The notes beneath the pieces are model-generated. The model saw nothing but the letters and a program-made list of their open reading frames with translations. It searched no databases and was not told where the DNA came from. The position numbers and the translations under genes are program-made. A stretch of 64,000 bases of DNA. Origin: Magnetospirillum gryphiswaldense MSR-1 v2. GTDB lineage: Bacteria; Pseudomonadota; Alphaproteobacteria; Rhodospirillales; Magnetospirillaceae. Shown piece by piece: positions 3,807-62,762 of the stretch. The stretch spans positions 1,674,001-1,738,000 of the forward strand of contig NC_023065.1 of assembly GCF_000513295.1 (NCBI RefSeq). The letters run 5' to 3'. Position 1 is the first letter of the stretch. Each line of letters starts with the position of its first letter.

Positions 3807-5438
3807 ATGCATGTTCTTCGTCTCGTCAGCACCGGCACGACCTCGGGTTTCCGGCATCTGCTGGTGGTCACCTGCCTAGCCGGACTGGCCAATGCTGCCT
3901 TGCTCGGCATGATCAATCAGGCGGCGGAGCGGGCGGCGCTGGCCAGCCCGTTCGACGGCGAGGCGCTGCTGATCTACATCTGCCTGTTCGGCTTCTTCTT
4001 CCTGGCCGACCGCGCCTCGTTGCGCGAGGCCAACCAGTTGGTGCAGCACCGGTTGGAAGCCTTGCGCCTGCGCGTGGTCGGCAAGTTGCGCCGGGTCGAT
4101 CTGCGCACCTTGGAAAATCTCGGTCAGGGTGAAATCTTCGCCACCGTGGCGCAAGAGATCAACCACCTGTCGCAAAGTCTGCCGCTGTTGGTCAGCGCCG
4201 CGCAAAGCCTTTTCCTGCTGGCCTTCTGCCTGCTTTACATCGCCACCTTGTCGCTGATCGCCTTCCTCGTCGTCACCGGCTTCACCGCCTTGGGACTGGC
4301 GCTGTTCTGGCTGCGGCGGCGCAAGCTGGACCACGAATTGATGCGGGTCCATGGCCAGGAAGCCGAGATGCTGGACACCCTGGCCCATTTTACCAAGGGT
4401 TTTCAGGAAATCCGCCTGAACGGCGACAAGAACGACGCCTTGTTCCGCCGCTTCACCCAGGTGGTCGATGATCTGCAAAATCGGGTGGTCGGTGTGGGCG
4501 GCAAATGGGTGGTGCTGCTGCAATTCGGCAACGCCTTCCTTTATGCCCTGGTCGGTGCCGTCATCTTCATCCTGCCGCTGTTCTTCCAGGGCTATACCGA
4601 CGTCATCTACAAGATCACCGCCGCCGCCATCTTCTGCGTCGGCCCGGTCACCGCCATCACCGCCGCCGCCCCGCTTTACACCAAGGCCGACATGGGCCTG
4701 GGCCACGTCGCCCGGCTGGAACAGCGCCTCAACCTCAAGCGCGGCCCCATGCCCGTGGTGACGAAATCGCGTTTTGCCGGTTTCTCCACCATCGCCTGCC
4801 GCGATCTTGGTTTCAGCTACCGCGACGAGGCGGGGGAAACCACCTTCACCTCGGGGCCGCTGGACCTGACCCTGACACGGGGCGAGACCGTGTTCGTGGT
4901 CGGCGGCAACGGCAGCGGCAAATCCACCGCCATGAAACTGTTATGCGGCCTCTACACCCCCGATACCGGCACGATCGAGGTGGACGGCACCGTCATCGGC
5001 GATTCCGAGCGCCAGGATTACCGCGAACTGTTCGCTGCCGTTTTCGCCGATTTCCACCTGTTCGACCGCCTTTACGGTCTGGACGACATCGACCCCGACC
5101 GGGTCCAGGCGCTGATCACGCGCATGGAATTGACCGACAAGGTCAGCTTCGTCCAGGGTCGCTTTTCCACCACTATCCTGTCCACCGGCCAGCGCAAGCG
5201 GCTGGCCATGATCGTCGCCCTGCTCCAGGACCGCGACATCTATCTGTTCGATGAATGGGCCGCCGACCAGGACGCCCATTTCCGCGAATTGTTCTACACC
5301 GTCTTGCTGCCCGAGTTGAAACAGCGCGGCAAGACCGTGCTGGCGGTCACCCATGACGACCGCTTCTGGCATTGCTGCGACCGCCGGCTGTCCATGGATC
5401 TGGGCGTCCTCACCGCCGAGACCGGGGGGACGGCATGA
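3807..5438 (+). CDS. Cyclic-peptide-type export ABC transporter (fused TMD-NBD), first copy
   Basis: A 543-residue half-transporter with an N-terminal six-helix membrane domain (~1-300) and a C-terminal ATPase. Walker A is GGNGSGKST with K372. The signature is LSTGQRKRLAM and Walker B runs LFDEWAADQD, instead of the usual LSGGQ and DEPTS. This combination is typical of the SyrD/PvdE family, which exports peptides, siderophore precursors or related metabolites across the inner membrane. The gene opens the PKS operon, and its TGA overlaps the ATG of the next, paralogous half-transporter, so a heterodimer is likely. Product export or self-protection is the expected job (inference). The start ATG has only a weak ribosome-binding site. 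Confidence 0.9.
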   Translation: MHVLRLVSTGTTSGFRHLLVVTCLAGLANAALLGMINQAAERAALASPFDGEALLIYICLFGFFFLADRASLREANQLVQHRLEALRLRVVGKLRRVDLRTLENLGQGEIFATVAQEINHLSQSLPLLVSAAQSLFLLAFCLLYIATLSLIAFLVVTGFTALGLALFWLRRRKLDHELMRVHGQEAEMLDTLAHFTKGFQEIRLNGDKNDALFRRFTQVVDDLQNRVVGVGGKWVVLLQFGNAFLYALVGAVIFILPLFFQGYTDVIYKITAAAIFCVGPVTAITAAAPLYTKADMGLGHVARLEQRLNLKRGPMPVVTKSRFAGFSTIACRDLGFSYRDEAGETTFTSGPLDLTLTRGETVFVVGGNGSGKSTAMKLLCGLYTPDTGTIEVDGTVIGDSERQDYRELFAAVFADFHLFDRLYGLDDIDPDRVQALITRMELTDKVSFVQGRFSTTILSTGQRKRLAMIVALLQDRDIYLFDEWAADQDAHFRELFYTVLLPELKQRGKTVLAVTHDDRFWHCCDRRLSMDLGVLTAETGGTA

Positions 5439-7087
5439 GCATCGCCGCTTTCCTGGGCGGGGCCAGCCGCCGGCAATTGTGGGTCATGGCCGCCCTCACC
5501 ACCACCGCCGGGCTGGCCAATGCTGGCTTGGTGGTGATGATCAATGAAGTCGGCGGCGACATCGCCCTGGGCGAGCGGCCCGGCTGGTTGCTGTGGCTGG
5601 GTTTCGGCAGTGTGTTCCTGGCCTATTACCTGTCCAATACCGCCGCCCTGCTGCGCGCCAACACCTTGATCGAGCATCTGCTCAACCGCGTCCGCCTGGA
5701 CGTGGTCGACAAGCTACGGCAAACCGAGTTGCTGGTGGCCGATTCCCTCGGGCGCGGCAAGCTTTATTCCATGGTCTCGCACGAGACCAACCACCTGTCG
5801 GTCACCTTTCCGTTGCTGGTCGACGCCTTCCAGCAGGCCATCTTGCTGTTTTTCTCGCTGATCTATCTGGCCTGGCTGTCGCCCATGGCCTTTGCCGCCT
5901 TCATCGTCGCCGTCGGTGCGGGTATCGCCAGCTATCTGGCCATCAACCGCCGCTTCCGCGTCACCCTGGCCGTCCTCGGCCAGCGGCAAGGCAGCATGCT
6001 GGACACCATCGACGCCATCATCCAAGGGGCCAAGGAAGTGCGGCTGAACAGCGCCTGCGGCGACGGTATCGAGCGCAGTTATCGCCAATTGTCGCGCTCC
6101 AGCGAAGCCCTGTTGGTCAAATCGGGCGAGCATTGGGCCGAGATGATCCTGCTGTCCAGCCTGGTCACCTATCTGCTTCTGGGCGTGGTCGGCTTCGCCT
6201 TTCCCGGCTTCATCGACGGCCACAGCCTGATCGTCTTCCAACTGATCCCGGTGCTGCTGTTTTGCGTCAGCCCGCTGGCCAAGATCGTCGCCCTGTCGCC
6301 CATGTTCATCCGCGCCCAGGTCGGCCTGGACGGTATCTTGCAGGTACAAAAGCGGCTGGCCGATGCCGGCTCGGTGTCGCCCGCCCTGGCGCGGGAACAG
6401 GCCAAGGCCTTCAGCGATTTCCGCACCCTGACCTATGAAGGACTATGCTTCACCCATCGTGATGAGAGCGGCGAGGCCGGCTTCACCGCCGGGCCGCTGG
6501 ACCTGACCCTGACACGGGGCGAGGTGGTGTTCGTGGTCGGCGGCAACGGCAGCGGCAAATCCACCGCCCTGCGCCTGCTGTGCGGCCTTTACCCGGCGGC
6601 CAAGGGGGTAATCCGGGTCGACGGCCAAGTGGTCGACAGTTCCGGCATCGCCGGCCTGCGCGAGCTGTTTTCCGCCATTTTCGTCGATTTCCACCTGTTT
6701 GACCGCCTGTATGGGCTGGAACAGGCCGACCCGGCCGAGGTCAACCGACTGATTGACCAGATGGGGCTGGCCGGCAAGGTCCGCTTTGCTGATGGCCGCT
6801 TCAGCCGCCTGCACCTGTCCACCGGCCAGCGCAAGCGGCTGGCGCTGATCGCGGCGTTGCTGGAAGACCGGCCCATCTATCTGTTCGATGAATGGTCGGC
6901 GGAACAGGACATCCACTTCCGCCGTTATTTTTATGAAAACGTCATCCCTGACCTTAGGGCCAAGGGCAAACTGGTGGTCGCCGTCAGCCATGACGAACGC
7001 TATTGGCACCATGCCGACCGGGTGGTGAAATTGGATTTGGGCCGCATCGTCTGGGATCGTCCTGGCAGCGAAGGAGGCCATGCATGA
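5435..7087 (+). CDS. Cyclic-peptide-type export ABC transporter (fused TMD-NBD), second copy
   Basis: A 550-residue paralogue of the preceding gene with the same layout: membrane domain to about residue 310, Walker A GGNGSGKST with K375, signature LSTGQRKRLAL and Walker B LFDEWSAEQD. ATG 5435 is chosen over an upstream in-frame ATG at 5372 because it overlaps the previous stop codon (ATGA) and restores the N-terminus of the first copy (MSIAAFLGGASRRQ). Several DNA blocks around Walker A, the signature and Walker B are identical in both copies, pointing to tandem duplication with later homogenisation. Its own stop overlaps the start of the AT-ER gene. It probably forms the second half of a heterodimeric exporter for the cluster product. 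Confidence 0.9.
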   Translation: MSIAAFLGGASRRQLWVMAALTTTAGLANAGLVVMINEVGGDIALGERPGWLLWLGFGSVFLAYYLSNTAALLRANTLIEHLLNRVRLDVVDKLRQTELLVADSLGRGKLYSMVSHETNHLSVTFPLLVDAFQQAILLFFSLIYLAWLSPMAFAAFIVAVGAGIASYLAINRRFRVTLAVLGQRQGSMLDTIDAIIQGAKEVRLNSACGDGIERSYRQLSRSSEALLVKSGEHWAEMILLSSLVTYLLLGVVGFAFPGFIDGHSLIVFQLIPVLLFCVSPLAKIVALSPMFIRAQVGLDGILQVQKRLADAGSVSPALAREQAKAFSDFRTLTYEGLCFTHRDESGEAGFTAGPLDLTLTRGEVVFVVGGNGSGKSTALRLLCGLYPAAKGVIRVDGQVVDSSGIAGLRELFSAIFVDFHLFDRLYGLEQADPAEVNRLIDQMGLAGKVRFADGRFSRLHLSTGQRKRLALIAALLEDRPIYLFDEWSAEQDIHFRRYFYENVIPDLRAKGKLVVAVSHDERYWHHADRVVKLDLGRIVWDRPGSEGGHA

Positions 7088-9348
7088 AAGCCTTCCTCTA
7101 TCCCGGCCAAGGGGCGCAACGCCTCGGCATGGGCGCCGAATTGTTCAAGCAATTTCCCGATCTGGTGGCCCAGGCCGATGCCGTCTTGGACTATTCCATC
7201 GCCGAATTGTGCCTGAACGGCCCGATCGAGCGGTTGACCCGCACCAATTTCACCCAGCCGGCGCTTTATGTGGTCTCGGCCCTGAAAACCCTGCAACAGG
7301 TGGCGGAAAGCGGCCCGCCCGACATGGTGCTGGGCCACAGCGTCGGCGAATACGCCGCCTTGTTCGCCGCCGGGGTGGTGGATTTCCAATCCGGTCTGCG
7401 CTTGGTGCACAAGCGCGGCCAGTTGATGGATCAGGCCGAAGGCGGCGGCATGGCCGCCATCATCGGCCTGGAGGCCGAGCAGATCGAGGCGGTCATCCAG
7501 GCCAATGGCTTGGCCGACGTCTTCGCCGCCAATTACAACACCCCGCGCCAGATCGTGCTGTCGGGCAGGCGCGATGCCATCGTCGCCGCCGAGCCCTTGT
7601 TCCGTCAGGCCGGGGCCAGCCATTACGTGGTGTTGCAGGTGGGCGGCGCCTTCCATACCCCGTTCATGGCCCAGGCCCAGCGCGACTTCGCCGCCTTCGT
7701 CGCCGACATTACCTTCGCCGCGCCGCGCATCCCGGTGATCGCCAACGTCACCGCCCGCCCACACGCCGCCGACACCATCCGCCAGCGCATGGTCGAGCAG
7801 ATCACCGCGCCGGTGCGCTGGAGCGAGTCCATCCGCTGGCTGCTGGCCAAGGGCCTGCGTTTCGAGGATTGCACCGAGATCGGCGACGGGCCACCGGTGG
7901 TCAAGCCGATGATCCGCCGCATCCAGGCCGAGGCCGGGCCGCTGGATGCCGCCATCCTGGCCGCCGAGGAAGCCGTACCACCGCCGCCGCCCGCCCCCCG
8001 GCCCCAGCGCATCCCCATCGGATCGGCGGCCTTTTGCGCCGATTTCGGCCTGTCCCAGGCCTATGTGGCCGGGGCCATGTACCAAGGCGTGTCCTCGGTC
8101 ACCCTGGTGGCGCGGCTGGCGCAAGCCGGCATGCTGGGCTTTTTCGGTGCCGGCGGGCTGCCCATGGCCGAGGTGGCGGCGGCGATCACCAATATCCGCG
8201 CCCAGATACCCGAGGATGCCCCCTTCGGCGTCAATTTCATCGCCCATGTCAATCATCCCCATCTGGAAGACCAACTGACCGATCTGCTGTTGCAACAGGG
8301 CGTGCGGGTGGTCGAGGCCTCGGCCTTCATGGAGGTGACGCCGGCCCTGGTGCGCTATCGCGCCGCTGGCCTGTCCGAGGACGGCAACCGCATCCGCGCC
8401 GCCAACCGGGTGATGGCCAAGGTGTCGCGCCCCGACGTGGCCGAACAATTCCTGTCACCAGCGCCCGAGCGGGTCATCACCAAGCTGCTGGAAGCCGGCA
8501 GCCTGACCCTGACCCAGGCGGAATTGCTGCGTCAGGTGCCCATGGCCGATGCCATCACGGTGGAATCGGATTCCGGCGGTCATACCGACCAGGGCATGCC
8601 CTTCACCCTGATCCCGGCCATCCTCCGCGTGCGCGATCAGGCGGCCGACCGCTTCCCCCGCTTCGGTCGCATCCATGTGGGCGCCGGCGGCGGCATCGGC
8701 ACGCCCGAGGCGGCGGCGGCGGTGCTGGTACTGGGGGCGGAATACCTGGTCACCGGTTCCATCAATCAATGCACGGTCGAGGCCGGGACCAGCGATCTGG
8801 TCAAGGACATGCTGGCCGGGGCGGCGGTGCACGACACCGCCTATGCCCCGTCGGGCGAGATGTTCGAATTGGGATCGAAGGTGCAGGTGCTGAAAAAGGG
8901 CCTGTTCTTCCCGGCGCGGGCGGACAAGCTGGTGGCGTTGTACCGGCAATACGACTCGCTCGATGCCATCGACCCGGCCACCCGCCGTCAGATCGAGGAC
9001 CGCACCTTCCATCGCCCGCTCGCCGCCATTTGGGACGAGCTGCGCAACCGCCTGTCGCCCGAGGAAATCGCGCGGGCCGAACGCATGCCCAAGCACAAGA
9101 TGGCCCTTGTGTTCCGCCGTTATTTCAAGGATTCCAGCCGTTGGGCGCTTACGGGCGACGCCGATCACAAGGTGGATTTCCAAATCCATTGCGGCCCGGC
9201 CATGGGTGCCTTCAACCAATGGGTCGCCGGCACGCCGCTGGAACCCTGGCGCACCCGCCACGTGGATGAAATCGGGCTGAAGCTGCTTGCGGAAACCGCC
9301 CAAATGCTCCACCGCCGCTTCGCTGAACTGGCCGGAGAGCGCGCATGA
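7084..9348 (+). CDS. trans-acting malonyl acyltransferase fused to PfaD-type enoyl reductase (AT-ER)
   Basis: A 754-residue bifunctional protein that serves AT-less PKS modules in trans. Residues ~1-290 form a FabD-like acyltransferase with the active-site motif GHSVGEY (S86), an early GQGAQ motif and the malonate-binding Arg in HKRGQLM, so it should load malonyl units on the ACPs of both PKS proteins. A Pro-rich linker (~297-308) leads to a PfaD/FMN-dependent enoyl reductase (~310-754) with ESDSGGHTD, VGAGGGIGTPEAA and GSINQ..EAGTSD motifs, which would reduce enoyl intermediates in trans. ATG 7084 overlaps the previous stop; the frame upstream to 7003 is non-homologous. The stop overlaps the PKS start at 9345 (ATGA), suggesting translational coupling. 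AT-ER fusions are common in trans-AT clusters. Confidence 0.96.
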   Translation: MKAFLYPGQGAQRLGMGAELFKQFPDLVAQADAVLDYSIAELCLNGPIERLTRTNFTQPALYVVSALKTLQQVAESGPPDMVLGHSVGEYAALFAAGVVDFQSGLRLVHKRGQLMDQAEGGGMAAIIGLEAEQIEAVIQANGLADVFAANYNTPRQIVLSGRRDAIVAAEPLFRQAGASHYVVLQVGGAFHTPFMAQAQRDFAAFVADITFAAPRIPVIANVTARPHAADTIRQRMVEQITAPVRWSESIRWLLAKGLRFEDCTEIGDGPPVVKPMIRRIQAEAGPLDAAILAAEEAVPPPPPAPRPQRIPIGSAAFCADFGLSQAYVAGAMYQGVSSVTLVARLAQAGMLGFFGAGGLPMAEVAAAITNIRAQIPEDAPFGVNFIAHVNHPHLEDQLTDLLLQQGVRVVEASAFMEVTPALVRYRAAGLSEDGNRIRAANRVMAKVSRPDVAEQFLSPAPERVITKLLEAGSLTLTQAELLRQVPMADAITVESDSGGHTDQGMPFTLIPAILRVRDQAADRFPRFGRIHVGAGGGIGTPEAAAAVLVLGAEYLVTGSINQCTVEAGTSDLVKDMLAGAAVHDTAYAPSGEMFELGSKVQVLKKGLFFPARADKLVALYRQYDSLDAIDPATRRQIEDRTFHRPLAAIWDELRNRLSPEEIARAERMPKHKMALVFRRYFKDSSRWALTGDADHKVDFQIHCGPAMGAFNQWVAGTPLEPWRTRHVDEIGLKLLAETAQMLHRRFAELAGERA

Positions 9349-12300
9349 GCAAGCCCATCGCCATCATCGGCATGGGTCTGCGCCTGCCCGGCGCCGACAC
9401 CTTGGATGGCTTCTGGCGGCATCTGGCCCAAGCCCGCTCGCTGATCACCGAGGTGCCGGCAAAGCGTTGGGACAAGGATGAATGGCGCGGCAACCCGGCC
9501 CGCGACAACAAGACCAATTGCATCTGGGGCGGCTTCGTCGACGACGCCGATTGCTTCGACGCCGAGTTCTTCGGCATTTCCCCGCGTGAAGCCGGGTGGA
9601 TGGACCCGCAGCAGCGCTTCGCCCTGGAAATGGCCTGGCATGCCATCGAGGATGCCGGTTATGCCGCCCACACCCTGGCCGGCAGCCGCACCGGCGTGTT
9701 CATGGGCGTCTGCCACTGGGATTACGCCGAGTTGCTGGAAAAGCATCTGGCCCAGGTCGATGCCTATACCCCCACCGGCATCGCCTTTTCCATCATCGCC
9801 AACCGGGTGTCGCATTTCTTCGACCTGCGCGGCCCCAGCGTCACCAACGACACCGCCTGCGCTGCCTCGGCTACCGCCATCCATGACGCCATCCGCGCCA
9901 TGCAGGCGGGCGAATGCGACATGGCCCTGGCCGGCGGCGTCAATCTGATCTGGTCGCCCAACCATTTCGTCGCCTTCGCCAAGGCCGGCATGCTATCCAA
10001 GGATGGCCGGGCCAAGGCGTTCGACGCCGATGCCGACGGCTATGTGCGCGGCGAAGGCGGCGCCATGTTGCTGCTGAAGCCGCTGGACAAGGCCATCGCC
10101 GACGGTGACCCCATCCATGGGGTGATTCGCGGCGCCGGCATCAATCACGGCGGTCGCACCAATTCTCTGACCGTCACCAATCCGCGCGCCCAGGCCGACC
10201 TGATCATCGAAGTGCATCAGGCCGCCGGCATCACCCCCGACACGGTGTCCTACATCGAGGCGCACGGCCCCGGCACCCCCTTGGGCGACCCCATCGAGAT
10301 CGCCGGGCTGAAGCTGGCCTTCGCCCATCTGCATGATCACGCCGGCACCGCACCCAAGGCCGGCTCCTGCGGCATCGGCTCGGTCAAGACCAATATCGGC
10401 CATCTGGAAGGCGCCGCCGGGGTGGCCGGCATGGTCAAGGTGCTGGCGGCGCTGCGTCACGGCGTGTTGCCGGCCAATGTGGGCTTCGGCCGTCTCAACG
10501 ATCTGATCGACCTGACCGGCACCGATTTTCATATCCAATCCGAGCCGACGCCCTGGCTGCCCCAGCCCGGCCAGCCCCGGCGGGCGGCAGTTAGTTCCTT
10601 CGGTTTCGGCGGCAGTAACGCCCATGTGGTGATCGAGGATGCGCCCATCCTCGCCCCCGCCGCATCCTTGCCCGGCCCCTACGTGCTGCCGCTGTCGGCT
10701 CCCGATGAAGAGCGGCTGCAAGCCCTGGTCGCGGATATGCGCGCCTTCGCCGCCGACCACCCGGTGGGGATCGGTCTCGACCAACTGGCCTATACCCTGC
10801 AAACCGGACGCGCCGAAATGGAATGCCGGCTGGTGCTGGAGGTGACGGATTGGGACGATCTGGCCGCCGCCCTGGCCGAACGCCGCTGGCTGCGCCCCGG
10901 CGCCGAAGGCGCCTCCGCCGCCATCGCCTGGGTCAATGGCGAGACGGTGGATTGGCAGGCGCTGTGGCCGGTGGCGCCACGCCGCATCCATGCCCCCCTG
11001 ACCCGCTTCGCCCGTATCCGTCACTGGATGGACCCATCGGTGGCGGCCAAGGATGACCGGGCGGTGCCGCATCCGCTGTTGCACCGCAATCTGTCGGGCT
11101 TTGGCGGCGTGCATTTCCGTACCACGCTGAAGGGGCCGGAATTCTTCTGGGCCGACCATCACGTCGGCGGGGTGCAGGTGCTGCCCGGCGTCGTCGCCCT
11201 GGAAATGGCCCGCGCCGCCGCCCAGTTGAGCGGCGACGGTCTTGCGCCCTTGGCCGTGGACGACGTGGTCTGGACCCGCCCGATCCGGGCCGGCGACGGC
11301 CCGACCCAGGTGGATGTGCGGCTGGAGCGCCGCCCTGACGACAGCATCGCCTTCACCATCGCCGAGGCCGATGGCCCGACCCATTGCCAAGGCGTATTGC
11401 GCCCCCTGGACGCCGCGCCGCCCACACTGGACCTTACCCCGCCGGGGGCCGAACTGGCGGTGGAGCAATGCTATGACCGCCTGCGCGCCAGCGGCGTCAC
11501 CCACGGCCCCGCCTTCCAGGCCCTTGCCAAAATCCATGGCGGCCAAGGCGAGGTGCTGGCCCAATTAAAGCTGCCGCGCCGGCTGCATCCCGGTCTGGCC
11601 GATCTGGCCCTGCATCCGGTGCTGCTGGATTCCGCCATCCAGGCCTGGATCGGCCTGGATCAGCAGGGTCTGGACGGCGCCGCCGTGCCCTTCGCCTGCC
11701 GCCGCATCGAGATGTTCGGCCCGTGCGAAACGGTGATGTGGGCGCGGGTGCGCCCTGCCGCCGCCGCCTCCACCCCCGGCTTGCGTCGCCTGGATATCGA
11801 ACTGGCCGACAAGACCGGCGCCGTGCGCGTGGCCTTCCGCGACCTGTCGCTGCGGGTGATGCCACTGGCGGCCCATCAGGACGAGCCGCCCGTGCTGGCC
11901 ATGGGCCAATGGCGCCCGGCGCCGCTGGATCATCCGCGCCCGCACGCCCTTGACACTCTGGTGGTGCTGGCCGGGCTGGACGCGAACGTGGATGGGGCCG
12001 TACTGCGCTTGGCCCCGGTGGGCACGGATCTGGCCGCCACCTTATCGGCATGGTTCGCGGCTCTGCATCAAAGCCTGGGCCGGATCATGCGCGAGACGAC
12101 ACGGCGCCAAGTGCTGATCCTCGCCGACGATGCCCTGCCGCCGTCCTTGCTGCTACCGCTGGCGGCGCTGCTGAAAACCGCCCGTATCGAACAACCGAAG
12201 CTCGACGCGGCGCTGATCCGCGTTGCCGATTCCACCCGCTTGGCCGCCATCATCGCCGCCGAACGCCGCCGCGCCGATGGCTGGCCGGAACTACGCTATG

Positions 12301-13400
12301 ATCAAAGCAATCAGCGTCTGGCCTGGACTCTGGAAGAAACCGTGTTGCCGGCGGCGATTCCGGCGCTCGACGCCGATGCCAGCTATTGGATCACCGGCGG
12401 TTTGGGCGGATTGGGCCGTCTGTTCGCCCATTGGCTGGTGGAACGCGGCGCCGGTCAGGTGATCTTGAGCGGACGCAGCCCGGTCGCCAACCATGATCCG
12501 CGGCTGCTGGCGCTGGGACCACGGGTGCGCTATGTCGCCTGCGACATCACCGACAAGGCAGAAGTGGCAAAGCTGGCGGGGGAACTGCCCCGGCTCAAGG
12601 GCATCATCCATGCCGCCGGCATCCTTGATGACGGCTATATCCTGACCGGTGACGCGAGGCGCGAAGCCCCGGTGCTGGCGCCCAAGGTGGCCGGCACGCT
12701 GGCCCTCGACGCCACCACCGCTGCCGCGCCCTTGGATTTCATGGTGTTGTGCTCGTCGGTGGCGGCGGTGTTCGGCAATGCCGGCCAGGGTGGCTATGGC
12801 GCTGGCAACGCCTTCCTCGACGGCTTCGCCGAAGAGCGCAATGCCTTGGTGGCCGAAGGCCAGCGCCAGGGCGCCACCATCGCCATCGCTTGGCCGCTAT
12901 GGGCCGAGGGCGGCATGGGCGTGGACGATGCGACCAAGGCCACCTTGAAGCGTCGTTTCGGCACCGAACCTATGCCCACCCGTGCCGGTCTGGCGGCACT
13001 GGATCGGGTCATCGCCCATGGCGGTCCTTGCCGCATCACCGCCCTTTACGGCGCCCGCGACCGTCTGCGCCGTACCCTGGCCGATTTCGGCCAAGCCCTG
13101 GCCGACGAGCCCGAGGCGCCTATGGGCGACACGGTGGCCTTGCTGCCCCAGGTTCAGGATTTCGTCCGCGACATCCTGGCCGACGTGCTGCGGCTGGAGC
13201 CGGGGCAGATCAGGGCCAACCGCAAGCTGGACGAATACGGCCTCGATTCCATCGCCATCGTCGAGGCCACCACCCGGCTGGAAGAGGCGCTGGGGCCGCT
13301 GTCGAAGACGCTGTTCTTCGAATATGTCGACCTTGCCGGCATCGCCGGCCATCTGGCGGCGGAATACGGCCCGGCCCTGGGCAAGGTGCTGACGGTTGCC
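9345..13400 (+). other. PKS module 1: KS-DH-KR-ACP
   Basis: Residues ~1-1352 of PKS protein 1. KS1 has C172 in DTACAAS and both His residues, although the usual HGTGT reads HGPGT. The DH is intact: H605 in an HxxxGxxxxP motif and D762 in the LLDSAIQ motif. The KR has a TGGLGGLG nucleotide site and Y1151. The ACP carries S1302 in GLDSI. The module should extend the starter by two carbons and leave an alpha,beta-unsaturated thioester, as a Michael acceptor for the branching step in module 2. Confidence 0.9.
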
Positions 13401-51503: not shown

Positions 51504-51509
51504 GATATT

Positions 51510-51514
51510 CCTCC
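51510..51514 (-). promoter_or_regulatory. Ribosome-binding site deciding the DUF697 start
   Basis: GGAGG on the - strand, optimally spaced before the ATG at 51503. Confidence 0.8.
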
Positions 51515-51684
51515 GGTTGCGCCCCGCGTCCGGCATGAAGCGCGAGGGAAGAGATGTCGGTGTGAATGAATCGGGCACCAGCCCGCAGGTACCCTACTAT
51601 TTGAGGCCATGGAAGAAAAGTACCGTTTTATACCACAGGGATATTTCATCGACCCATTGCTCGCGCGGGCATTGCCAGAAGCGT
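51515..51684. promoter_or_regulatory. Divergent intergenic region, expected promoters for the acyl hydrolase operon and DUF697 gene
   Basis: The region between the divergent DUF697 and AT-like genes is less GC-rich than its surroundings near 51591-51655 (ACTATTTGAGG, TTTTATACC, GATATTTC). It must hold the promoter for the 51685-57067 operon. TTTATACC and GATATTTC are AT-rich -10-like candidates, but no clean -35/-10 pair is recognised. Confidence 0.3.
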
Positions 51685-54852: not shown

Positions 54853-55090
54853 AATCCGCGCCTTCATCGAGGAACAGTTCCTGGTGGAATTCGACGATGA
54901 CGACTTCCCCGAGGACACCAACCTGTTCAAGGAAGGGGTGATGGATTCCTTCGGCTACGTGCAATTGTGCCGCTTTCTCGAACGCGAATTCGCCATCACC
55001 TTCACCGAGGCCGAGATGACCGGCAACGTTCTGGTCAGCCTGAGCCAGATCCGCGACACGGTGGCGGCCAAGCTCAAGCAGAACGGCTAG
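54845..55090 (+). CDS. Free acyl carrier protein for the amidated starter unit
   Basis: An 81-residue discrete ACP with S35 in the motif GVMDSFGYVQL. It begins 8 bp inside the symporter gene and ends 3 bp before the amidotransferase ATG. The ACP-amidotransferase pair matches the discrete gene pair of glutarimide-polyketide clusters (isomigrastatin and cycloheximide type), where malonyl-ACP is converted to malonamyl-ACP as starter. It is distinct from the second free ACP at 59043, which serves beta-branching. Confidence 0.92.
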   Translation: MDKIRAFIEEQFLVEFDDDDFPEDTNLFKEGVMDSFGYVQLCRFLEREFAITFTEAEMTGNVLVSLSQIRDTVAAKLKQNG

Positions 55091-57080: not shown

Positions 57081-57836
57081 TTAATTTTCCCAGGGGAACT
57101 TCTGTTCAGTGACATAGCGGCGGATGCCAGTGCGGGTGGCCGGGTCGCTGAACATGGCCCGGTTGGCCTCTAACGCTGGCGGACGGGCGGCATCGACCAG
57201 CGCCGACAAATCATGACGATAAAGCTTGTAGCGTCCGACGGCTGACTTATCCAACCGGCGCAGGCGCAACAGATGCTTGCGCAACAGGCCGTCCACCGGA
57301 TCCTCCACACCATCCACCAAACCCCAGGCCAAGGCCTGGGCCGCATTGACCGGCTGGGTCGACAAGGTCAGGTAATGGGCGCGTTGCTCCCCCACCCGCC
57401 GGATCAAAAACGGCAGCACACAGGCCGGAAACAGGCCGAACAGCAATTCCGACAGGGCGAAACTGGCGCTATGGTCGGCCAGCACCATGTCGCAGGCCGC
57501 CGCCAGCCCGACGCCGCCAGCATTGACGCGGCCACGGGTGACCGCCACCGATACGAACGGCCCCATGGCCAGCCGCCGCCACAGATCATAAAGCGGCGCC
57601 GGATCAAGCACCGCATCGCTTTCCGCCACCGCCTGAAAGTCGCCGCCACCACAAAACACCTGGGCACCGCCGGTCAGCACCAGCACCGACGGCCCGTCCG
57701 CCGCCTCGCAGCCGCGCACCACCTCGGTCAATTCGGCCAGGAATTGGGCGTTGATGACATGGCCCAGTTCGGGCCGGGTCGGGCTGACCGTACAGATACC
57801 GTCGGCCTGTTCCACCCTCAGCGTCGTATAGGTCAT
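57081..57836 (-). CDS. Enoyl-CoA hydratase-like ECH1 of the HMG-synthase cassette (dehydratase)
   Basis: A 251-residue crotonase-fold protein of usual length. It has the oxyanion segment VFCGGGDFQAV and a NAGGVGLAAACDMVLAD stretch, close in style to PksH/CurE ECH1. ECH1 dehydrates HMG-type ACP intermediates during beta-branching. The matching ECH2 (decarboxylase) is not a separate gene here but is built into PKS module 5. The start overlaps the stop of the KS gene upstream (ATGA). It is last in the - strand operon FkbM, P450, HMGS, ACP, KS, ECH1. Confidence 0.92.
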   Translation of the reverse strand: MTYTTLRVEQADGICTVSPTRPELGHVINAQFLAELTEVVRGCEAADGPSVLVLTGGAQVFCGGGDFQAVAESDAVLDPAPLYDLWRRLAMGPFVSVAVTRGRVNAGGVGLAAACDMVLADHSASFALSELLFGLFPACVLPFLIRRVGEQRAHYLTLSTQPVNAAQALAWGLVDGVEDPVDGLLRKHLLRLRRLDKSAVGRYKLYRHDLSALVDAARPPALEANRAMFSDPATRTGIRRYVTEQKFPWEN

Positions 57837-59056
57837 GTCGCCCCCCTGATCACCAGCGCCGTATCGGTGCCGCCGAAGCCGAACGACAGTTTCAATCCGT
57901 GACGGACGGCCTGGGTCTGGGGCAATCCCTGCACATGCCGCAACACCGGCTCATGCGGATGCTCCAGATTGCGGGTGGCGTGCAGCCGTCCTGCCCGCAT
58001 CTGCAACAACAGCGCCGCCAGTTCGATGGCCCCGGCGGCGCTGAGGCCGTGACCGATGACCGATTTGGTCGCCACCACCCAGGCTTGGTCCAAGCCCAGG
58101 CCGTGCAGGGTGGCAGCTTCGACCTCGTCACCCTTGGGCGTGCTGGTGGCGTGGGCGCTGATCACGTCGATGTCGCCCGCCCCTAAGCCCGCCTGACGCA
58201 AGGCCAGGGTGATGGCGCGGCGCTGGCCGTCACCATCGGGTTCGGGACCGCGTTGACCATCGACCACCTGAGCGGCACCGATCAGCGTGCCATAGCCCGG
58301 CCCGGTCTGGTCGGCACGGCACAACACCAGAGCGGCACAGCATTCACCATAGAGGAAACCGTCGTGATCGCGGTCGAACGGACGGCAGGCGCGGCCCGGC
58401 TGATCGGCGAAACGGGCCGAGCCCATGGCCCCCAGTGCCCGCATCCCCAACAGGTCCAGATAAGACACATCCTGCATGGCCCCGAGCGCGATGCAGACAT
58501 CGACCGTGCCGGCACGGATGGCCGCCGCCGCCTGGATCACCGCCACCGCACCACTGGCCGAGGCGGCGCCGACAGTATGGGCGAAGCCGCGAATGGGAAA
58601 AATACTGGCGGCCAGACCGCAGACTTCGCTGTCCAGATAGACATGACCGGCGCGCGGTGGCACGAAAGCCAGCCGACCGGCATAATCCTGGGCCATCAAC
58701 ACCTGTTCCCGCGCGAACAGGTTGGAGCCGCCGACCACCAGCCCGATGCGGTCCGGCGCCACCTTGTCCAGGCCCGCCTCGCCCCAGGCTTCATTGAGCA
58801 CGGCCAAGGCGACACGACCGCCCAAGCCGATGGTGCGCGCCACCCGCTTGGGCACCAGCTCGGGCGGCAGTTCGGGCGGGTCGGGCATTTCCACGCCGAT
58901 GAAGGAGGTCGAGCCATCGGGCGCCTGCCGCCCCGGTCGCGCCAGCGCGGAAAACACGTCGCGCCCGGCCAGCAGGCCGTCGATCAGGCTGGCCTTGCCA
59001 TAGCCCAGACCGCAGGCGGTGCCGATGCCGGCAAAAACGATGTCAGGCGCTGGCAC
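57833..59056 (-). CDS. Decarboxylating ketosynthase of the HMG-synthase cassette
   Basis: A 407-residue FabF-like KS. The nucleophilic Cys is replaced by Ser (GAASASGAV in place of DTACSSS), while both His residues remain (SAHATST, VIGHGLSAAG). This is the signature of KSs that only decarboxylate malonyl-ACP to acetyl-ACP for beta-branching (PksF/CurC type). Its ATG lies 14 bp inside the ACP gene and its stop overlaps the ECH1 start, so the three are translationally coupled. Confidence 0.92.
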   Translation of the reverse strand: MPAPDIVFAGIGTACGLGYGKASLIDGLLAGRDVFSALARPGRQAPDGSTSFIGVEMPDPPELPPELVPKRVARTIGLGGRVALAVLNEAWGEAGLDKVAPDRIGLVVGGSNLFAREQVLMAQDYAGRLAFVPPRAGHVYLDSEVCGLAASIFPIRGFAHTVGAASASGAVAVIQAAAAIRAGTVDVCIALGAMQDVSYLDLLGMRALGAMGSARFADQPGRACRPFDRDHDGFLYGECCAALVLCRADQTGPGYGTLIGAAQVVDGQRGPEPDGDGQRRAITLALRQAGLGAGDIDVISAHATSTPKGDEVEAATLHGLGLDQAWVVATKSVIGHGLSAAGAIELAALLLQMRAGRLHATRNLEHPHEPVLRHVQGLPQTQAVRHGLKLSFGFGGTDTALVIRGAT

Positions 59057-59291
59057 ACTTGGCCTTCAGCAACAGGGCCAGTTCGCCCAGATTGCGCGGC
59101 CCGTGCAATTGCACCATGGGCAGGTCGAGACCCAGGATTTCCAGCGTGTTCATCAGGATTTCACTGCGTTCCACCGAATCGACGCCAAGGGCGGCCATGG
59201 AATCGGCGGCGCCGATGTCGTGGTCGATCATCTCGGGCACCACCTCGCGGATTTGTCCGATCAGGATGGACAGGATGTCGTCGCTTTCCAA
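59043..59291 (-). CDS. Discrete ACP of the HMG-synthase cassette
   Basis: An 82-residue donor ACP with S39 in GVDSVERS. A TTG start at 59291 is chosen because AAGGGGA lies 5 to 11 bases before it and it follows the HMGS stop by 11 bp; the in-frame ATG at 59381 lies inside the HMGS gene and would add 30 non-homologous residues. Malonyl on this ACP is decarboxylated by the neighbouring KS, and the acetyl unit is used by HMGS. Its 3' end overlaps the KS gene. Confidence 0.88.
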   Translation of the reverse strand: MESDDILSILIGQIREVVPEMIDHDIGAADSMAALGVDSVERSEILMNTLEILGLDLPMVQLHGPRNLGELALLLKAKCASA

Positions 59292-59296: not shown

Positions 59297-59303
59297 TCCC
59301 CTT
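59297..59303 (-). promoter_or_regulatory. Ribosome-binding site for the TTG-started ACP
   Basis: AAGGGGA on the - strand, five bases before the TTG at 59291 and directly at the HMGS stop codon. Confidence 0.7.
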
Positions 59304-60559
59304 TAAACGAAACGATATTGACGGTGGTAGCCCACCATGGCCTCCAGCACAAGCCGGCCCGAGCCCTGGAACGCGTTCCACGCCCCGGCAATGGTATCGG
59401 GAGCGACGGTAACATCTTTTTGACCGAAACGAATGACGTGGTCGCCACGCAACAAATGCTCGTACTCGCTTATGCTCAGGCGGTAACGGCGATCGAGGTC
59501 GGCGCCGATGCCCATGGCCCGCAAGCGGCGCTGGCTATCGGGGCTGACCACGCCGCTGTAAAACTCGGAACAGCAGCCCGAGCCATAGGAAAACAGCCCG
59601 ACCCGGCACGGCTCGGTGATCGCGGCATTTTCCAGCAGGCCGGCGAGCCCCAGGAACACCGAGCCGCCAGCGGTGTTGCCGACGCGCTGACCAAAGGTCA
59701 GGCTGGGGCCGAGACGACGGGTGAAATCGGCCTCGATCTCGTCGGGCTTGGCCTTGAACAGCTTGCGCATCAAGGCGCGATGGGCGCCCTTGACCATGCC
59801 GCCGAACGGGGTGTGAAAGCTGAGATAGCTGAAGGACTGGCGGAAATCGGCGCCTTCGACGCGGCGGGCATAATCCTTCCAGCAGCGTTCGCAACAATCC
59901 AGGTAAGCCATCAGCGACAGATCGGCGTCACCGGCCTCGGTATCGGGACCGGGGCGGCAGGTATCCATCACCTCGAAGCCGTGATTGCCATAGGCGCCCG
60001 CATCCATACGCAGAATATGGGGGGTGTCGCTGACCAGCAGGGCCACCGCACCGGCGCCCGAACTGGGCTCGGAATAGGCCCATTCCTGGATCGCCGCCGC
60101 ATCGGCCAGGGCGAAACGCGACAGATCGGTGCACACCACCAAGGCCTTGGCCCCGGGCGAGGTGCCCGACAGGATGAAGTTGACGGCCATCTGCAAGCCG
60201 GCGGTGCCGGAATAACAGGCCTGCTTGATCTCGAACAGGCGGCAATTGCCGGCCAGCCCCAAATGGTGGTGGACATAAGTGCTGATGGACTTGCCGAAAT
60301 CGATGCCCGATTCGGTACAGGTCACCACCATCTCGATACGCGCCCGCTCTTCCACGCTCAAGGCATCGACCAGCGGTTTGGCGGCGTTGACGGCAAAGGT
60401 GATGGGATCTTCGAACGGCAAGGCCACCGTCTTTTCCCGCATCAGCAGATTGTCGAAACGTGGCATGTCGAGACCGCGATGCACGCATAACTCACGCACG
60501 TCCAGACAGGCGGCGCCGCCATAGACGTTGAGCGCCTCGATCCCAGCCGCCAAGGCCAT
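59303..60559 (-). CDS. HMG-CoA synthase-like beta-branching enzyme (HMGS)
   Basis: A 418-residue thiolase-fold enzyme with the HMGS catalytic set: E83 in CTESGIDFG, C115 in KQACYSGTAG and H249 in SFHTPFGGM. It adds acetyl-ACP to the beta-keto group of the ACP-bound chain, here the tandem Trp-containing ACPs of module 5. PksG and CurD are the family models. ATG 60559 is chosen because it overlaps the P450 stop (TGATG) and places the conserved ALNVYGGAACLDV segment at the N-terminus; the frame extends 63 bp further up into the P450 gene. Confidence 0.95.
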   Translation of the reverse strand: MALAAGIEALNVYGGAACLDVRELCVHRGLDMPRFDNLLMREKTVALPFEDPITFAVNAAKPLVDALSVEERARIEMVVTCTESGIDFGKSISTYVHHHLGLAGNCRLFEIKQACYSGTAGLQMAVNFILSGTSPGAKALVVCTDLSRFALADAAAIQEWAYSEPSSGAGAVALLVSDTPHILRMDAGAYGNHGFEVMDTCRPGPDTEAGDADLSLMAYLDCCERCWKDYARRVEGADFRQSFSYLSFHTPFGGMVKGAHRALMRKLFKAKPDEIEADFTRRLGPSLTFGQRVGNTAGGSVFLGLAGLLENAAITEPCRVGLFSYGSGCCSEFYSGVVSPDSQRRLRAMGIGADLDRRYRLSISEYEHLLRGDHVIRFGQKDVTVAPDTIAGAWNAFQGSGRLVLEAMVGYHRQYRFV

Positions 60560-61806
60560 CAGCGCCCCACCTTGACCGGAAGCGTGGCCAGACCACGGGC
60601 GTTCAGCCGGTCGGTGCGCCACACCGGCGTGCCGGCCAGGGTGATGGACGGCCAGCGGTCGAGCAAGGCGTTGATGGCGACCAGCCCTTCCAGTCGGGCC
60701 AAGGGCGCGCCCAGGCAGACATGGGGGCCGCCGCCGAAGGTGAAGTGCGCATTGCCCACCCGTCCGATGTCGAACAGATCAGGGTTGTCGAAGCGGGCCG
60801 GGTCGCGGTTGACGGCGCCGATCATCCCGAGGATGGGGGCGCCGGCGGGAATAACCGTGCCGCAGATTTCCACCTCTTCGCGCGCCACCCGCAAGATCAT
60901 GTTGCCGCCCGGCTCGCAGCGCATGAATTCCTCGACGGCGCTGCGCACCAGCGACCGGTCGGCGCGCAACCGCGCCATCTGCTCGGGGTTATCCAGCAAC
61001 AGCCGCATACCGTTGCCGATCAGCGTCACCGTGGTTTCGTGGCCGGCGATCAACATGGACATCATGTTGGTCAGGGTTTCTTCCTCGCTGACCACGCCGT
61101 CGTCCTGGGCGCGGATGATGATGCCGGTCAGGCTGGCATCACCGGCAGCCCGGCGTTCGGCCAGGAAACCGCGCAGGAAGTCCTTGCTCGCCTTCATGGC
61201 GTCGAGTGCGCGCTGCTTGTCCTCGGGCGAGATCATCACGTCGGCGACGCGGATCAGCGCCTCGCTCCAGCCATGGATGGTGTCGTCCATGCTGGACGGC
61301 AGATTGAGCAGGTTGCACAGCACCCGCATGGGCATGGGGGCAGCGAAATCGCGGATCAGGTCGATCTCGCCCTCGTCCGGCAATTCGGCCACCAATCTGG
61401 CCGCCTCGGCCTCGATCATCGGCGCCATGTCCTTGACCGCCGGCAGCTTGAAGGCGTCTTCCCACACCGCGCGCATGCGCTTGTGGTCGGCGCCGTCCAC
61501 GTTGATCATCTGCGGCTGCACGCCCTGGTAAAGCTCATGCCCCACCGGGTCACGCTGACGGTACTCGTCGTTGTTCCAGCCGGGGTTCCAGTAATGGGTA
61601 TCGCGCCCGATCTTGGGCGATTTGGCGATGGCGCCAAAGGCTTCATGCCCCAACACGAAATAGATGCCCGATTGCTCATCCAGGTGGATGGGCCCCTGCT
61701 GTTGCAGGCGCCGCAGATCGGCATAGGGATTTTCCAGAAAGGCCCGGTCGGTCAGCATCGCCCACCAGTCATGGCCGGTTACCGGCCCGGTCGTGGTTTC
61801 CGCCAT
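60559..61806 (-). CDS. Cytochrome P450 monooxygenase
   Basis: A 415-residue soluble bacterial class I P450. It has the I-helix motif AGHETT, the ExxR motif in EEFMR and the heme ligand C364 in FGGGPHVCLG. It has no redox partner gene nearby. A GGAGG 4 to 8 bases before ATG 61806 fixes the start, although the frame is open for 61 more codons. It lies between FkbM (20 bp upstream) and HMGS (1-bp overlap). It should oxidise the polyketide. A hydroxylation, or closure of a methylenedioxy ring on an O-methyl group supplied by FkbM, are both conceivable (inference). Confidence 0.94.
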   Translation of the reverse strand: MAETTTGPVTGHDWWAMLTDRAFLENPYADLRRLQQQGPIHLDEQSGIYFVLGHEAFGAIAKSPKIGRDTHYWNPGWNNDEYRQRDPVGHELYQGVQPQMINVDGADHKRMRAVWEDAFKLPAVKDMAPMIEAEAARLVAELPDEGEIDLIRDFAAPMPMRVLCNLLNLPSSMDDTIHGWSEALIRVADVMISPEDKQRALDAMKASKDFLRGFLAERRAAGDASLTGIIIRAQDDGVVSEEETLTNMMSMLIAGHETTVTLIGNGMRLLLDNPEQMARLRADRSLVRSAVEEFMRCEPGGNMILRVAREEVEICGTVIPAGAPILGMIGAVNRDPARFDNPDLFDIGRVGNAHFTFGGGPHVCLGAPLARLEGLVAINALLDRWPSITLAGTPVWRTDRLNARGLATLPVKVGR

Positions 61807-61810
61807 CTTT

Positions 61811-61817
61811 CCCTCCC
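61811..61817 (-). promoter_or_regulatory. Ribosome-binding site deciding the P450 start
   Basis: GGGAGGG on the - strand, directly before the ATG at 61806. Confidence 0.75.
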
Positions 61818-61826
61818 TTTTCGCGC

Positions 61827-62762
61827 TCACCGCGCCGCGTAGATATGGAACACCGCCGCGCCCCCTTGCGCCAGCGGATGGGTGCCGACAGAGGTGCGAA
61901 AACCGCGCCGGCGCAAGTCTTCCGCCATGATCTCGGTTACCTCTTCGCCCAGATGAACCTCGACCAGCAATTGCTGTATTTTCGGCCAATCGGCCTCGTC
62001 CAGACCGGCCAGAACCTCGCGTTCGGCCCCCTCGGTATCGATCTTCAGCAAATCCACCCGGTCGATGCCCAGGGCTTGCATCTGCGCCGACAGGGTGTCG
62101 ATTTGCGCCCGCACGGTCTCGGGCCGCAGCAGTTGGTCAAGGAACGCCGTGTCGGCGGCCACCTGGGTGGCGCCGCTGCGCTCCAGCACCTCTTGCACGT
62201 CGTCGCCCGCAATCGCCCCGCCGCCCAACAATTGGCGTAAACCGGCGGCCATGGTCTGGCCCACCGCCCGGTTCTGCGTCGATAGCGCGGCGACACCGGG
62301 GAAATAGTCGAATTCCGCCCAACCGGGCTCGGCTCCCAAGGCCAGTTGTATGGCCTGAGCCGGCGGCACCAGCGCCGCCGCGTTGCGTTCCAGCACCGCG
62401 AACACTGCCGGCATGGGCTCGAAAGCGACGATGCGGGCCTGGGGGCAATGGTCGCGTAAGTAAAGCGAGAACAGGCCGATATTGGCGCCCACATCCAGAT
62501 AGGTGCCGTCGGCGGGCAGGCTTAAACCATGGGCGGCCAGATCATCGGAAAAGATTTCGTGAGCGCCGAAATCCACCTCGTAGGTGTTAAGGCAAAACAC
62601 GCTACGGCCATCGGGCAAGGTTGCGGATTGCATGATCGGCATTTCCCCACGGCCTGACGCCGCCCACGAAGACAGGGCGAATTTTTCGGCCAGAGTTTCG
62701 CGCAAAGCGTTGATGCCGTCAAGGCAACCGCTTGGCAGCAATGGGCCGGCTCTGTTAAGCAT
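61827..62762 (-). CDS. FkbM-family SAM-dependent O-methyltransferase
   Basis: Up to 311 residues. The SAM-binding motif is YLDVGANIGLFSLYL, and the FkbM hallmark LLKIDTEGAEREVLAG follows in the C-terminal half. The family methylates hydroxyl groups on polyketides (FkbM in FK506) and sugars. The full frame begins at ATG 62762, only 5 bp from the ATG of the divergent phosphoesterase gene, and leaves no room for a promoter. ATGs at 62642 and 62633 are alternatives; 62633 has a GGGGAA at a good distance and would still keep the whole domain. It is first in the - strand operon that continues with the P450. Target hydroxyl unknown. Confidence 0.88.
   Translation of the reverse strand: MLNRAGPLLPSGCLDGINALRETLAEKFALSSWAASGRGEMPIMQSATLPDGRSVFCLNTYEVDFGAHEIFSDDLAAHGLSLPADGTYLDVGANIGLFSLYLRDHCPQARIVAFEPMPAVFAVLERNAAALVPPAQAIQLALGAEPGWAEFDYFPGVAALSTQNRAVGQTMAAGLRQLLGGGAIAGDDVQEVLERSGATQVAADTAFLDQLLRPETVRAQIDTLSAQMQALGIDRVDLLKIDTEGAEREVLAGLDEADWPKIQQLLVEVHLGEEVTEIMAEDLRRRGFRTSVGTHPLAQGGAAVFHIYAAR

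What the first reader, a model, noticed from the sequence alone, without database searches (positions are those of the whole stretch)
3807..62762. A complete glutarimide-type trans-AT PKS-NRPS cluster in an alphaproteobacterium
The sequence shows 11 KS domains without integrated AT, one AT-ER fusion, a free ACP plus AsnB-like amidotransferase, a KS-B-ACP module directly after a KS-DH-KR-ACP module, a full HMG-synthase cassette, an in-line oxygenase gene, a KS0 and a C-A-PCP-TE end. Starter amidation plus early branching is the known route to glutarimide polyketides. Domain order and, from memory, the Magnetospirillum sesbanimide cluster suggest a sesbanimide-like product ending in an amino acid. 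No dedicated regulator or phosphopantetheinyl transferase is present.
Basis: partly seen in the sequence, partly recalled or inferred. Interest (0 to 1): 0.85.

Follow-up and report, generated by a model that had tools for sequence, protein, structure and literature searches.

The report
Published sesbanimide R biosynthesis gene cluster
This stretch of a bacterial chromosome is an already published gene cluster that builds sesbanimide R, a compound toxic to cancer cell lines; comparing it with relatives suggests which enzyme does one unsettled step and shows an odd, dead carrier domain buried in the assembly line.

Summary
The window matches the sesbanimide R trans-AT PKS-NRPS cluster of Magnetospirillum gryphiswaldense, already deleted, over-expressed and tied to its product (PMC8262917). 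The sbnN start (7084) to the sbnQ stop (48378) spans 41,295 bp, the published deletion size.

I compared 24 related clusters. KS1-KS5 group position by position with five actinomycete glutarimide PKSs. Three points go beyond the sections I read: (1) the missing enoylreductase is most likely the PfaD-type half of SbnN, present in 24 of 24 relatives, not SbnX, which lies at the same distance from the cluster in only 1 of 24; (2) the arginine adenylation domain keeps its code in the marine clusters; (3) SbnQ has five KSs, the last non-elongating, in the window and 24 relatives, where the product needs five elongations, so iteration looks ancestral.

Oddest: a carrier domain lacking its serine (24 of 25 clusters) is nested in the module-4 KS linker, and in four other genomes' PKSs. 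A serine-less ACP in one trans-AT module is in print (PMC5764310).

The parts
225..3659 (+). hybrid histidine kinase directly upstream (likely one of the paper's 'regulatory' ORFs)
   Evidence: Pfam HisKA, HATPase_c, Response_reg (two stretches), Hpt
3807..5438 (+). ABC exporter 1 (MSR-1_15600 by order)
   Evidence: Pfam ABC_tran; TIGR01194 cyclic peptide export 316 bits, over its cut-off of 286; ABC1 profile hit in the stretches of 21 of 24 related clusters
5372..7087 (+). ABC exporter 2 (the true start lies inside this open frame)
   Evidence: Pfam ABC_tran
7084..9348 (+). SbnN: trans-acyltransferase (about 7087-7932) fused to a PfaD-type enoylreductase (about 8017-9315)
   Evidence: AT GHS and ER GHT histidine kept in 25 of 25 clusters
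9345..28370 (+). SbnO: KS-DH-KR-ACP / KS-B-ACP / KS-KR-ACP / KS-[nested serine-less ACP]-MT-ACP / KS-ECH-ACP-ACP / KS-DH*
15264..15998 (+). branching (B) domain of module 2
   Evidence: weak partial RhiE_B match; own B profile in 23 of 24 relatives and 5 of 5 actinomycete loci
20571..20780 (+). serine-less ACP-like domain nested inside the KS linker of module 4 (GLDP instead of GLDS)
   Evidence: Pfam PP-binding 28.7 bits, cut-off 20.8, followed by the far part of the KS linker; the near part precedes it
21558..22112 (+). C-methyltransferase of module 4
   Evidence: Pfam Methyltransf_12
24648..25352 (+). in-line ECH of module 5 (exomethylene formation)
   Evidence: Pfam ECH_1
27681..28370 (+). 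degenerate DH-like end of SbnO, first half of split module 6
   Evidence: no Pfam match; no HxxxGxxxxP motif; the paper calls it a DH lacking that motif
28367..29668 (+). SbnP: flavin monooxygenase, proposed Baeyer-Villiger enzyme
   Evidence: Pfam FMO-like; relatives of 67-97% identity in 29 of 34 genomes
29683..48378 (+). SbnQ: ACP / KS-DH-KR-ACP / KS-ACP / KS-DH-ACP / KS-KR-ACP / KS0-ACP / C-A-PCP-TE (start ATG chosen inside the 29599 GTG frame)
42562..43821 (+). KS0 (non-elongating), first active-site His replaced by Ala
45838..47286 (+). adenylation domain, specificity code DTEDIGAITK (code positions recalled)
48394..49308 (+). SPFH/Band-7 protein, conserved neighbour of unknown role
   Evidence: 17 of 24 related clusters
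49314..50627 (+). periplasmic binding protein (Peripla_BP_6), conserved neighbour
   Evidence: 16 of 24 related clusters
51379..52713 (+). SbnA: AT-like protein, acylhydrolase in the paper
   Evidence: Pfam Acyl_transf_1; role
54845..55090 (+). SbnK: free starter ACP (GVMDS)
55094..57067 (+). SbnJ: AsnB-like amidotransferase that amidates the malonyl starter (inferred)
   Evidence: role
57081..57836 (-). free ECH of the beta-branching cassette
57833..59056 (-). decarboxylating KS of the cassette (Cys to Ser)
59061..59222 (-). donor ACP of the cassette (matched stretch)
59303..60622 (-). HMG synthase
60559..61989 (-). SbnE: cytochrome P450 (C6 oxygenation, inferred); the listed start overlaps the next gene
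61827..62762 (-). SbnD: FkbM-type O-methyltransferase

Best explanation
This is the sesbanimide R biosynthetic cluster. Shown by others: deleting the core abolishes the compound, and its structure is solved. Inferred from anatomy: SbnJ amidates malonyl on the free ACP SbnK; modules 1-2 of SbnO (KS-DH-KR-ACP, KS-B-ACP) build and cyclise the glutarimide; module 3 leaves the C5 alcohol; module 4 adds the C-methyl; module 5 with the HMG-synthase cassette makes the exomethylene; split module 6 with the monooxygenase SbnP inserts an ester oxygen. SbnQ adds ten carbons in five rounds although it has only four elongating KSs, so one module works twice; I favour the first (KS-DH-KR-ACP), at about even odds. 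The three saturated positions are most likely reduced in trans by the PfaD-type enoylreductase half of SbnN, not by the acyl-CoA dehydrogenase SbnX as published. KS0 passes the chain to C-A-PCP-TE, which adds L-arginine and releases it. SbnE and SbnD put on the C6 methoxy group.
For: Identity: the span from sbnN start to sbnQ stop is 41,295 bp, the stated deletion size; the gene order fits MSR-1_15600 to 15650; the gap before the first ABC gene is 147 bp against a replaced promoter fragment of 145 bp. Glutarimide: KS1-KS5 each form a clade with the matching actinomycete KS, support 0.998-1.0 (11 of 25 clusters plus 5 actinomycete loci used). ER: searches (PfaD over cut-off; best PDB matches DfnA 4cw5 and MlnA 4z38, then PfaD proteins), AT-ER in 24 of 24 clusters, the His of the GGHT/I motif, needed for reduction in GbnE (PMC10921412), kept in 25 of 25. 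SbnX: 11 kb upstream of sbnN, beyond regulator and transport genes; homologues of 51-98% identity in 23 of 24 genomes, on the cluster's contig in 4 and at the same distance only in the sister genome G061; none at E 1e-60 in G086, which still has the cluster. Split module 6: the monooxygenase is fused to the SbnO end in G086 and to the SbnQ start in G079. Iteration: SbnQ has 5 KSs and 2 KRs in 24 of 24 relatives; in the last KS the active-site His was found in 0 of 24, Ala in 16, undecided by my motif in 8.
Against: The tools give the genome no name, so identity rests on the size match and gene order. The paper's methods say that three codons at each end were kept, so the DNA removed would be 18 bp less than the span its number equals. 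The paper assigns the ER step to SbnX; its supplementary tables could not be read and may already list an ER in SbnN. Most relatives are drafts, so a SbnX gene on another contig is not proof of distance. No tool result says which SbnQ module iterates. SbnQ has two KRs for five ketoreductions, so KR and DH steps are not explained by colinearity either. In gladiolin, binding of a trans-ER suppressed iteration of a KS-DH-KR-ACP module, which speaks against one module being both reduced and iterative here. Two related clusters (G071, G075) have frame breaks in KS domains.
Confidence: 0.93

Rival explanations
1. As published: the enoyl reductions in the SbnQ half are done by SbnX, a stand-alone acyl-CoA dehydrogenase, and SbnN is only an acyltransferase.
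For: Proposed in PMC8262917; SbnX lies at the same distance upstream of the cluster in the window's genome and in the sister genome G061.
Against: SbnN carries a complete PfaD-type ER domain with its catalytic His, present in 24 of 24 related clusters. SbnX-like genes are in 23 of 24 genomes, but on the contig of the cluster in only 4 and about 11 kb from sbnN in only 1.
Confidence: 0.08
2. The adenylation domain is dead in the marine sesbanimide producers, so the window's cluster is an intermediate on the way to losing the NRPS module (one of the paper's suggestions).
For: The marine strains' reported products lack arginine, and the paper saw unusual residues near the A-domain active site of Stappia indica PHM037, a strain not compared here.
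Against: All 24 A domains compared (window and 23 of 24 relatives; G080 ends before it) keep D235, E239, D278, G301 and T331; 11 of 24 have the identical ten-letter code, the window and Stappia indica SBBC 49 among them; Roseibium aggregatum PHM038, named in the paper with a sesbanimide cluster, differs by one I to V. Core motifs A3, A5, A7, A8 and A10 matched in all but G082 (A3), G074 (A8) and G061 (A7, A8, A10; its frame breaks there). Loss of arginine after assembly fits better.
Confidence: 0.12
3. The nested serine-less ACP of module 4 is only a relic of a lost module, without function.
For: It cannot carry a substrate in 24 of 25 clusters, and in most distant pairs it diverges about as fast as the linker around it.
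Against: Kept in frame at the same point in 25 of 25 clusters; in the three closest pairs dN/dS of the insert is 0.04, 0.31 and 0.29 against 0.44, 0.32 and 0.42 for the flanking linker; five serine-less inserts at the same point were read in four other genomes, two of them with weak ACP scores of about 12 bits.
Confidence: 0.37

Closest known systems
Sesbanimide R cluster (sbn) of Magnetospirillum gryphiswaldense, PMC8262917
   Same: Core span of 41,295 bp, same gene order and domains; to all appearance the same locus
   Different: Nothing seen in the DNA. My reading differs on the enoylreductase (SbnN rather than SbnX) and adds the nested serine-less ACP, where the paper's text says all ACP domains have the serine
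Marine sesbanimide clusters (Stappia indica PHM037, Roseibium aggregatum PHM038; Kacar et al. 2021, not held here, known through PMC8262917 and PMC10574677)
   Same: Same module order, AT-ER, monooxygenase, fifth SbnQ KS and C-A-TE in PHM038 and Stappia indica SBBC 49 (the KS0 residue was read as Ala in SBBC 49 and not resolved in PHM038)
   Different: The second SbnQ module has a DH there (11 of 24 relatives) and none in the window (13 of 24 relatives agree with the window); the reported products lack arginine
Actinomycete glutarimide PKSs (loci L032, L033, L034, L035, L037)
   Same: AT, AsnB, then KS-DH-KR-ACP-KS-B-ACP-KS-KR-ACP-KS-ACP; KS1-KS5 orthologous
   Different: No match to my ER, nested-ACP or module-4 MT profiles, no close SbnP relative (none in 4 of 5 genomes, 34% identity in the fifth); module 5 is KS-DH-KR instead of KS-ECH
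Gladiolin/etnangien PKS, PMC10921412 (passages)
   Same: A trans-acting, FabK-related ER serving two modules, and an intrinsically iterative KS-DH-KR-ACP module
   Different: Different compound; there ER binding suppresses iteration; the ER GbnE is a standalone protein
Phthoxazolin PKS module 9, PMC5764310 (passages and section 15)
   Same: A trans-AT module whose first ACP lacks the serine, beside an active ACP; its discrete AT also carries an oxidoreductase domain
   Different: Its module 9 has a KS0; the passages do not say whether the serine-less ACP sits inside the KS linker

Membership tests
Glutarimide trans-AT PKS | AsnB-like amidotransferase with a free starter ACP | tested here: met
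Glutarimide trans-AT PKS | KS-DH-KR-ACP-KS-B-ACP block | tested here: met
   B only weakly by Pfam
Glutarimide trans-AT PKS | KS1 and KS2 in the glutarimide clades | tested here: met
   support 1.0 and 1.0
Glutarimide trans-AT PKS | Product contains a glutarimide ring | not tested
   shown by NMR in PMC8262917, not by a tool here
Sesbanimide (sbn) cluster | Split module 6 with in-line monooxygenase | tested here: met
Sesbanimide (sbn) cluster | HMG-synthase cassette, P450, FkbM methyltransferase, terminal C-A-PCP-TE | tested here: met
Sesbanimide (sbn) cluster | Core length equal to the published deletion | tested here: met
   41,295 bp from sbnN start to sbnQ stop; same number in the paper, whose methods keep three codons at each end
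PfaD-type trans-enoylreductase | PfaD family score over the curated cut-off and the GGHT/I catalytic His | tested here: met
   (610 against 449 bits); motif
PfaD-type trans-enoylreductase | Reduces ACP-bound enoyl thioesters of SbnQ | not testable with these tools
   needs enzyme assay
Functional acyl carrier protein (nested domain of module 4) | Phosphopantetheine-accepting serine | tested here: not met
   Pro in the window; Ser absent in 24 of 25 clusters
Functional acyl carrier protein (nested domain of module 4) | ACP sequence family | tested here: met
   PF00550 over cut-off in the window, matched at E 0.01 in 24 of 25 members; profile positions 59-139 match solved ACPs such as 2afd and 2l22

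The most novel reading that the evidence does not exclude
Some trans-AT PKS ketosynthases carry a carrier-protein domain that has lost its phosphopantetheine serine, nested at one fixed point inside the KS linker, and use it as a protein docking or gating element, in sesbanimide synthases perhaps to recruit the P450 SbnE and the methyltransferase SbnD to the module 3-4 intermediate. It sits on KSs of several lineages, so it looks like a recurrent architectural part of trans-AT PKSs and not a sesbanimide quirk. (Odds lowered slightly after one search showed that one serine-less ACP in such a module is already in print.)
Probability: 0.27. Interest if true: 0.53.

Novelty: already known. Interest (0 to 1): 0.26.

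Why it matters
The cluster itself is in print, so its discovery value is low. The comparison makes three open points of the published pathway testable: which protein is the enoylreductase, whether the arginine module is alive in the marine strains, and whether iteration is built in. The nested serine-less ACP, if functional, would be a part of trans-AT PKS architecture worth knowing for those who recombine modules, since it lies in the linker behind the KS.

Tried and rejected
Rejected: AT-ER fused to SbnO in relatives (suggested by stop-to-stop frames of about 7000 aa); one search shows separate frames. Rejected: that the solved PksL chain 5eny holds the nested ACP (three stretches); the alignment shows an N-terminal ACP and an uninterrupted linker. 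Rejected: a nested ACP in the Bacillus contig-13 KS suggested by a partial match; one search shows ordinary tandem ACPs. A second long linker in L169 holds no ACP match (-3.7 bits). Led nowhere: tRNA and Rfam scans (none); plasmid search with the starter ACP (4 records, 37-51% identity). Literature: searches for an inactive or serine-less carrier domain listed papers only (three). I read passages of all three and one section of PMC5764310: that paper reports a serine-less ACP in phthoxazolin module 9; PMC10921412 an ACP0 in a legend about an engineered S941A mutant; PMC6916388 an inactive ACP0 in another pathway. Kacar et al. 2021 is not held. One search did not find the phrase sought on lateral KS contacts. 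The structure prediction of the nested domain was still unfinished, so no fold search was made. Dropped rows: the KS tree used 11 of 25 clusters, because the others had a KS cut by my 20-kb stretch ends or, in G071 and G075, also by frame breaks. In one search only 178 of 400 KSs had both linker anchors. In one search my motifs left some His positions undecided, KS2's first His among them in 24 of 25 clusters (G079 read Ala there, not checked further), though it is present in the window.
Full report
WHAT IS THERE. The window lies at 1674001-1738000 of a single-contig genome of 4,365,796 bases; from recall this is the size of Magnetospirillum gryphiswaldense MSR-1, but no tool names it. Pfam scans of the window cut at its KS starts gave SbnN = AT plus ER; SbnO = KS-DH-KR-ACP, KS-B-ACP, KS-KR-ACP, KS-MT-ACP, KS-ECH-ACP-ACP, KS and an unmatched DH-like end; SbnP = flavin monooxygenase; SbnQ = ACP, KS-DH-KR-ACP, KS-ACP, KS-DH-ACP, KS-KR-ACP, KS0-ACP, C-A-PCP-TE; and the free ACP, AsnB, HMG-synthase cassette, P450 and FkbM methyltransferase. 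All 11 KSs keep the Cys; only the last lacks the first His.

IT IS A PUBLISHED CLUSTER. PMC8262917 (read: abstract, opening part of the text, sections 6, 7, 8, 10, 12, 15 and passages; its supplements were not readable here) deleted MSR-1_15620 to 15650, stated as 41,295 bp, lost a 691.38-Da compound, and solved it as sesbanimide R. In the window the ATG of sbnN at 7084 to the stop of sbnQ at 48378 is 41,295 bp; the methods keep three codons at each end, so the number fits the span of the four genes. The gap before the first ABC gene is 147 bp where the paper replaced a 145-bp promoter fragment. Predicted glutarimide PKSs in Magnetospirillum were also noted in PMC7930024 (passages); PMC10574677 (passages) cites both sesbanimide papers.

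A tree of KS domains from 11 sesbanimide-type clusters and 5 actinomycete loci (146 tips) puts KS1, KS2, KS3, KS4 and KS5 each with the actinomycete KS of the same number (support 1.0, 1.0, 0.999, 0.998, 1.0), and each of the 11 positions is its own clade. So the first five KSs look inherited together from a shared glutarimide ancestor.

DISTRIBUTION. Of 34 genomes given to, 29 have a SbnP relative of 67-97% identity, among them Magnetospirillum, Stappia, Roseibium, Magnetovibrio, Aurantimonas, Roseospira, Rhodobium and MAGs labelled Acidobacteria and beta proteobacterium; of the five actinomycetes four have none and one a 34% match. Across the class it is rare: 3 of 385 genomes at E 1e-150, this one included.

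WHO REDUCES THE CHAIN. The paper needs an enoylreductase for SbnQ and proposes SbnX, an acyl-CoA dehydrogenase. The only such gene found near the cluster is at 1668900-1670078, 11 kb before sbnN, and I take it to be SbnX. Its homologues (E 1e-60 or better) occur in 23 of 24 genomes, on the cluster's contig in 4 and at the same distance in 1. SbnN, which the paper's text calls an acyltransferase, scores 610 bits for the PfaD family, its best PDB matches are DfnA and MlnA, the AT-ER is in 24 of 24 clusters, and the histidine of the GGHT motif, needed for reduction in GbnE (PMC10921412, passages), is kept in 25 of 25 (G088 has AGHT). I therefore give the reduction to SbnN. This is inference; no assay was possible.

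ITERATION. After the ester oxygen, sesbanimide R needs five rounds of elongation to reach C26 (my count from the structure). SbnQ has five KSs, the last non-elongating, and only two KRs. Five KSs and two KRs are found in 24 of 24 related clusters (in G071 and G075 KS frames are broken, G080 ends after C). In the relatives' last KS the His was found in 0 of 24, Ala in 16, and 8 were undecided by my motif or cut. The shortfall is thus shared, which favours programmed iteration over a recent accident. The paper proposes module seven or eight. I favour the first SbnQ module, the only one with both DH and KR, with gladiolin module 5 as precedent; but there the trans-ER suppresses iteration, so I hold this at about even odds.

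THE ARGININE MODULE. Codes read from 24 A domains (positions recalled from the phenylalanine-activating standard): 11 are DTEDIGAITK, the window's, 4 DTEDIGAVTK, the rest differ at one to three places (G061 is cut before the last); Stappia indica SBBC 49 is identical and Roseibium PHM038 differs by one I to V. Core motifs are kept in all but G082 (A3), G074 (A8) and G061, whose frame breaks. This does not prove activity but speaks against a dead domain.

THE NESTED SERINE-LESS ACP. In module 4 the KS linker is split by a 70-residue carrier domain (20571-20780). Pfam PP-binding scores it at 28.7 bits, over its cut-off, and matches 24 of 25 members at E 0.01. The serine is replaced (window GLDP); it is absent in 24 of 25 clusters, G064 alone having S. 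Among 178 KSs with both linker anchors (of 400), 152 have a short linker (50-79 residues) and 26 a long one (130-159): 25 are sesbanimide-type module 4, one is in a Vallitalea MAG. Serine-less inserts at the same point were read in that MAG (two), Bacillus siamensis, Pseudoduganella violacea and G101, two of them with weak ACP scores, on KSs of several lineages. None is seen in module 4 of 5 of 5 actinomycete loci (linker read letter by letter in L032 only). In 398 genomes of the phylum, full or near-full matches came from 3, this one included. No solved KS chain whose alignment was shown has it. The three closest pairs show dN/dS of 0.04, 0.31 and 0.29 in the insert, so it is not drifting freely; distant pairs are near saturation. 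A serine-less first ACP of a trans-AT module, beside an active one, is in print for phthoxazolin module 9 (PMC5764310, passages and section 15); whether it sits inside the KS linker is not said there. Its role is unknown; a docking site for the trans-acting oxidation and methylation enzymes is my guess. Searches found no other description; they cover open-licence papers and those phrases only.

VERDICT. Observation confirmed, interpretation right, cluster already known. Interest is low for the finding itself; the enoylreductase reassignment and the nested domain are the parts worth a specialist's time.

Noticed in passing
20571-20780 +: Serine-less ACP nested inside the KS linker of module 4; also seen in L162, L163, L164, L166 and L169.
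   Followed up: partly
48394-50627 +: SPFH/Band-7 protein and periplasmic binding protein follow the megasynthase in 17 and 16 of 24 related clusters; no role known.
   Followed up: no
L118 (G086) and L124 (G079): The monooxygenase is fused to the SbnO end in one MAG and to the SbnQ start in another.
   Followed up: partly
L111-L113 (G071) and L115 (G075): Frame breaks inside KS domains of otherwise complete clusters; assembly error or decay not decided.
   Followed up: no
L151 (G374): A further sesbanimide-type module 4 (KS, serine-less ACP, MT, ACP) in a genome listed as same phylum but not same class.
   Followed up: no
L076:10114-12630: SpoIIE-type response regulator and Hpt protein between sbnX and the cluster, near the hybrid kinase at window 225-3659.
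   Followed up: no
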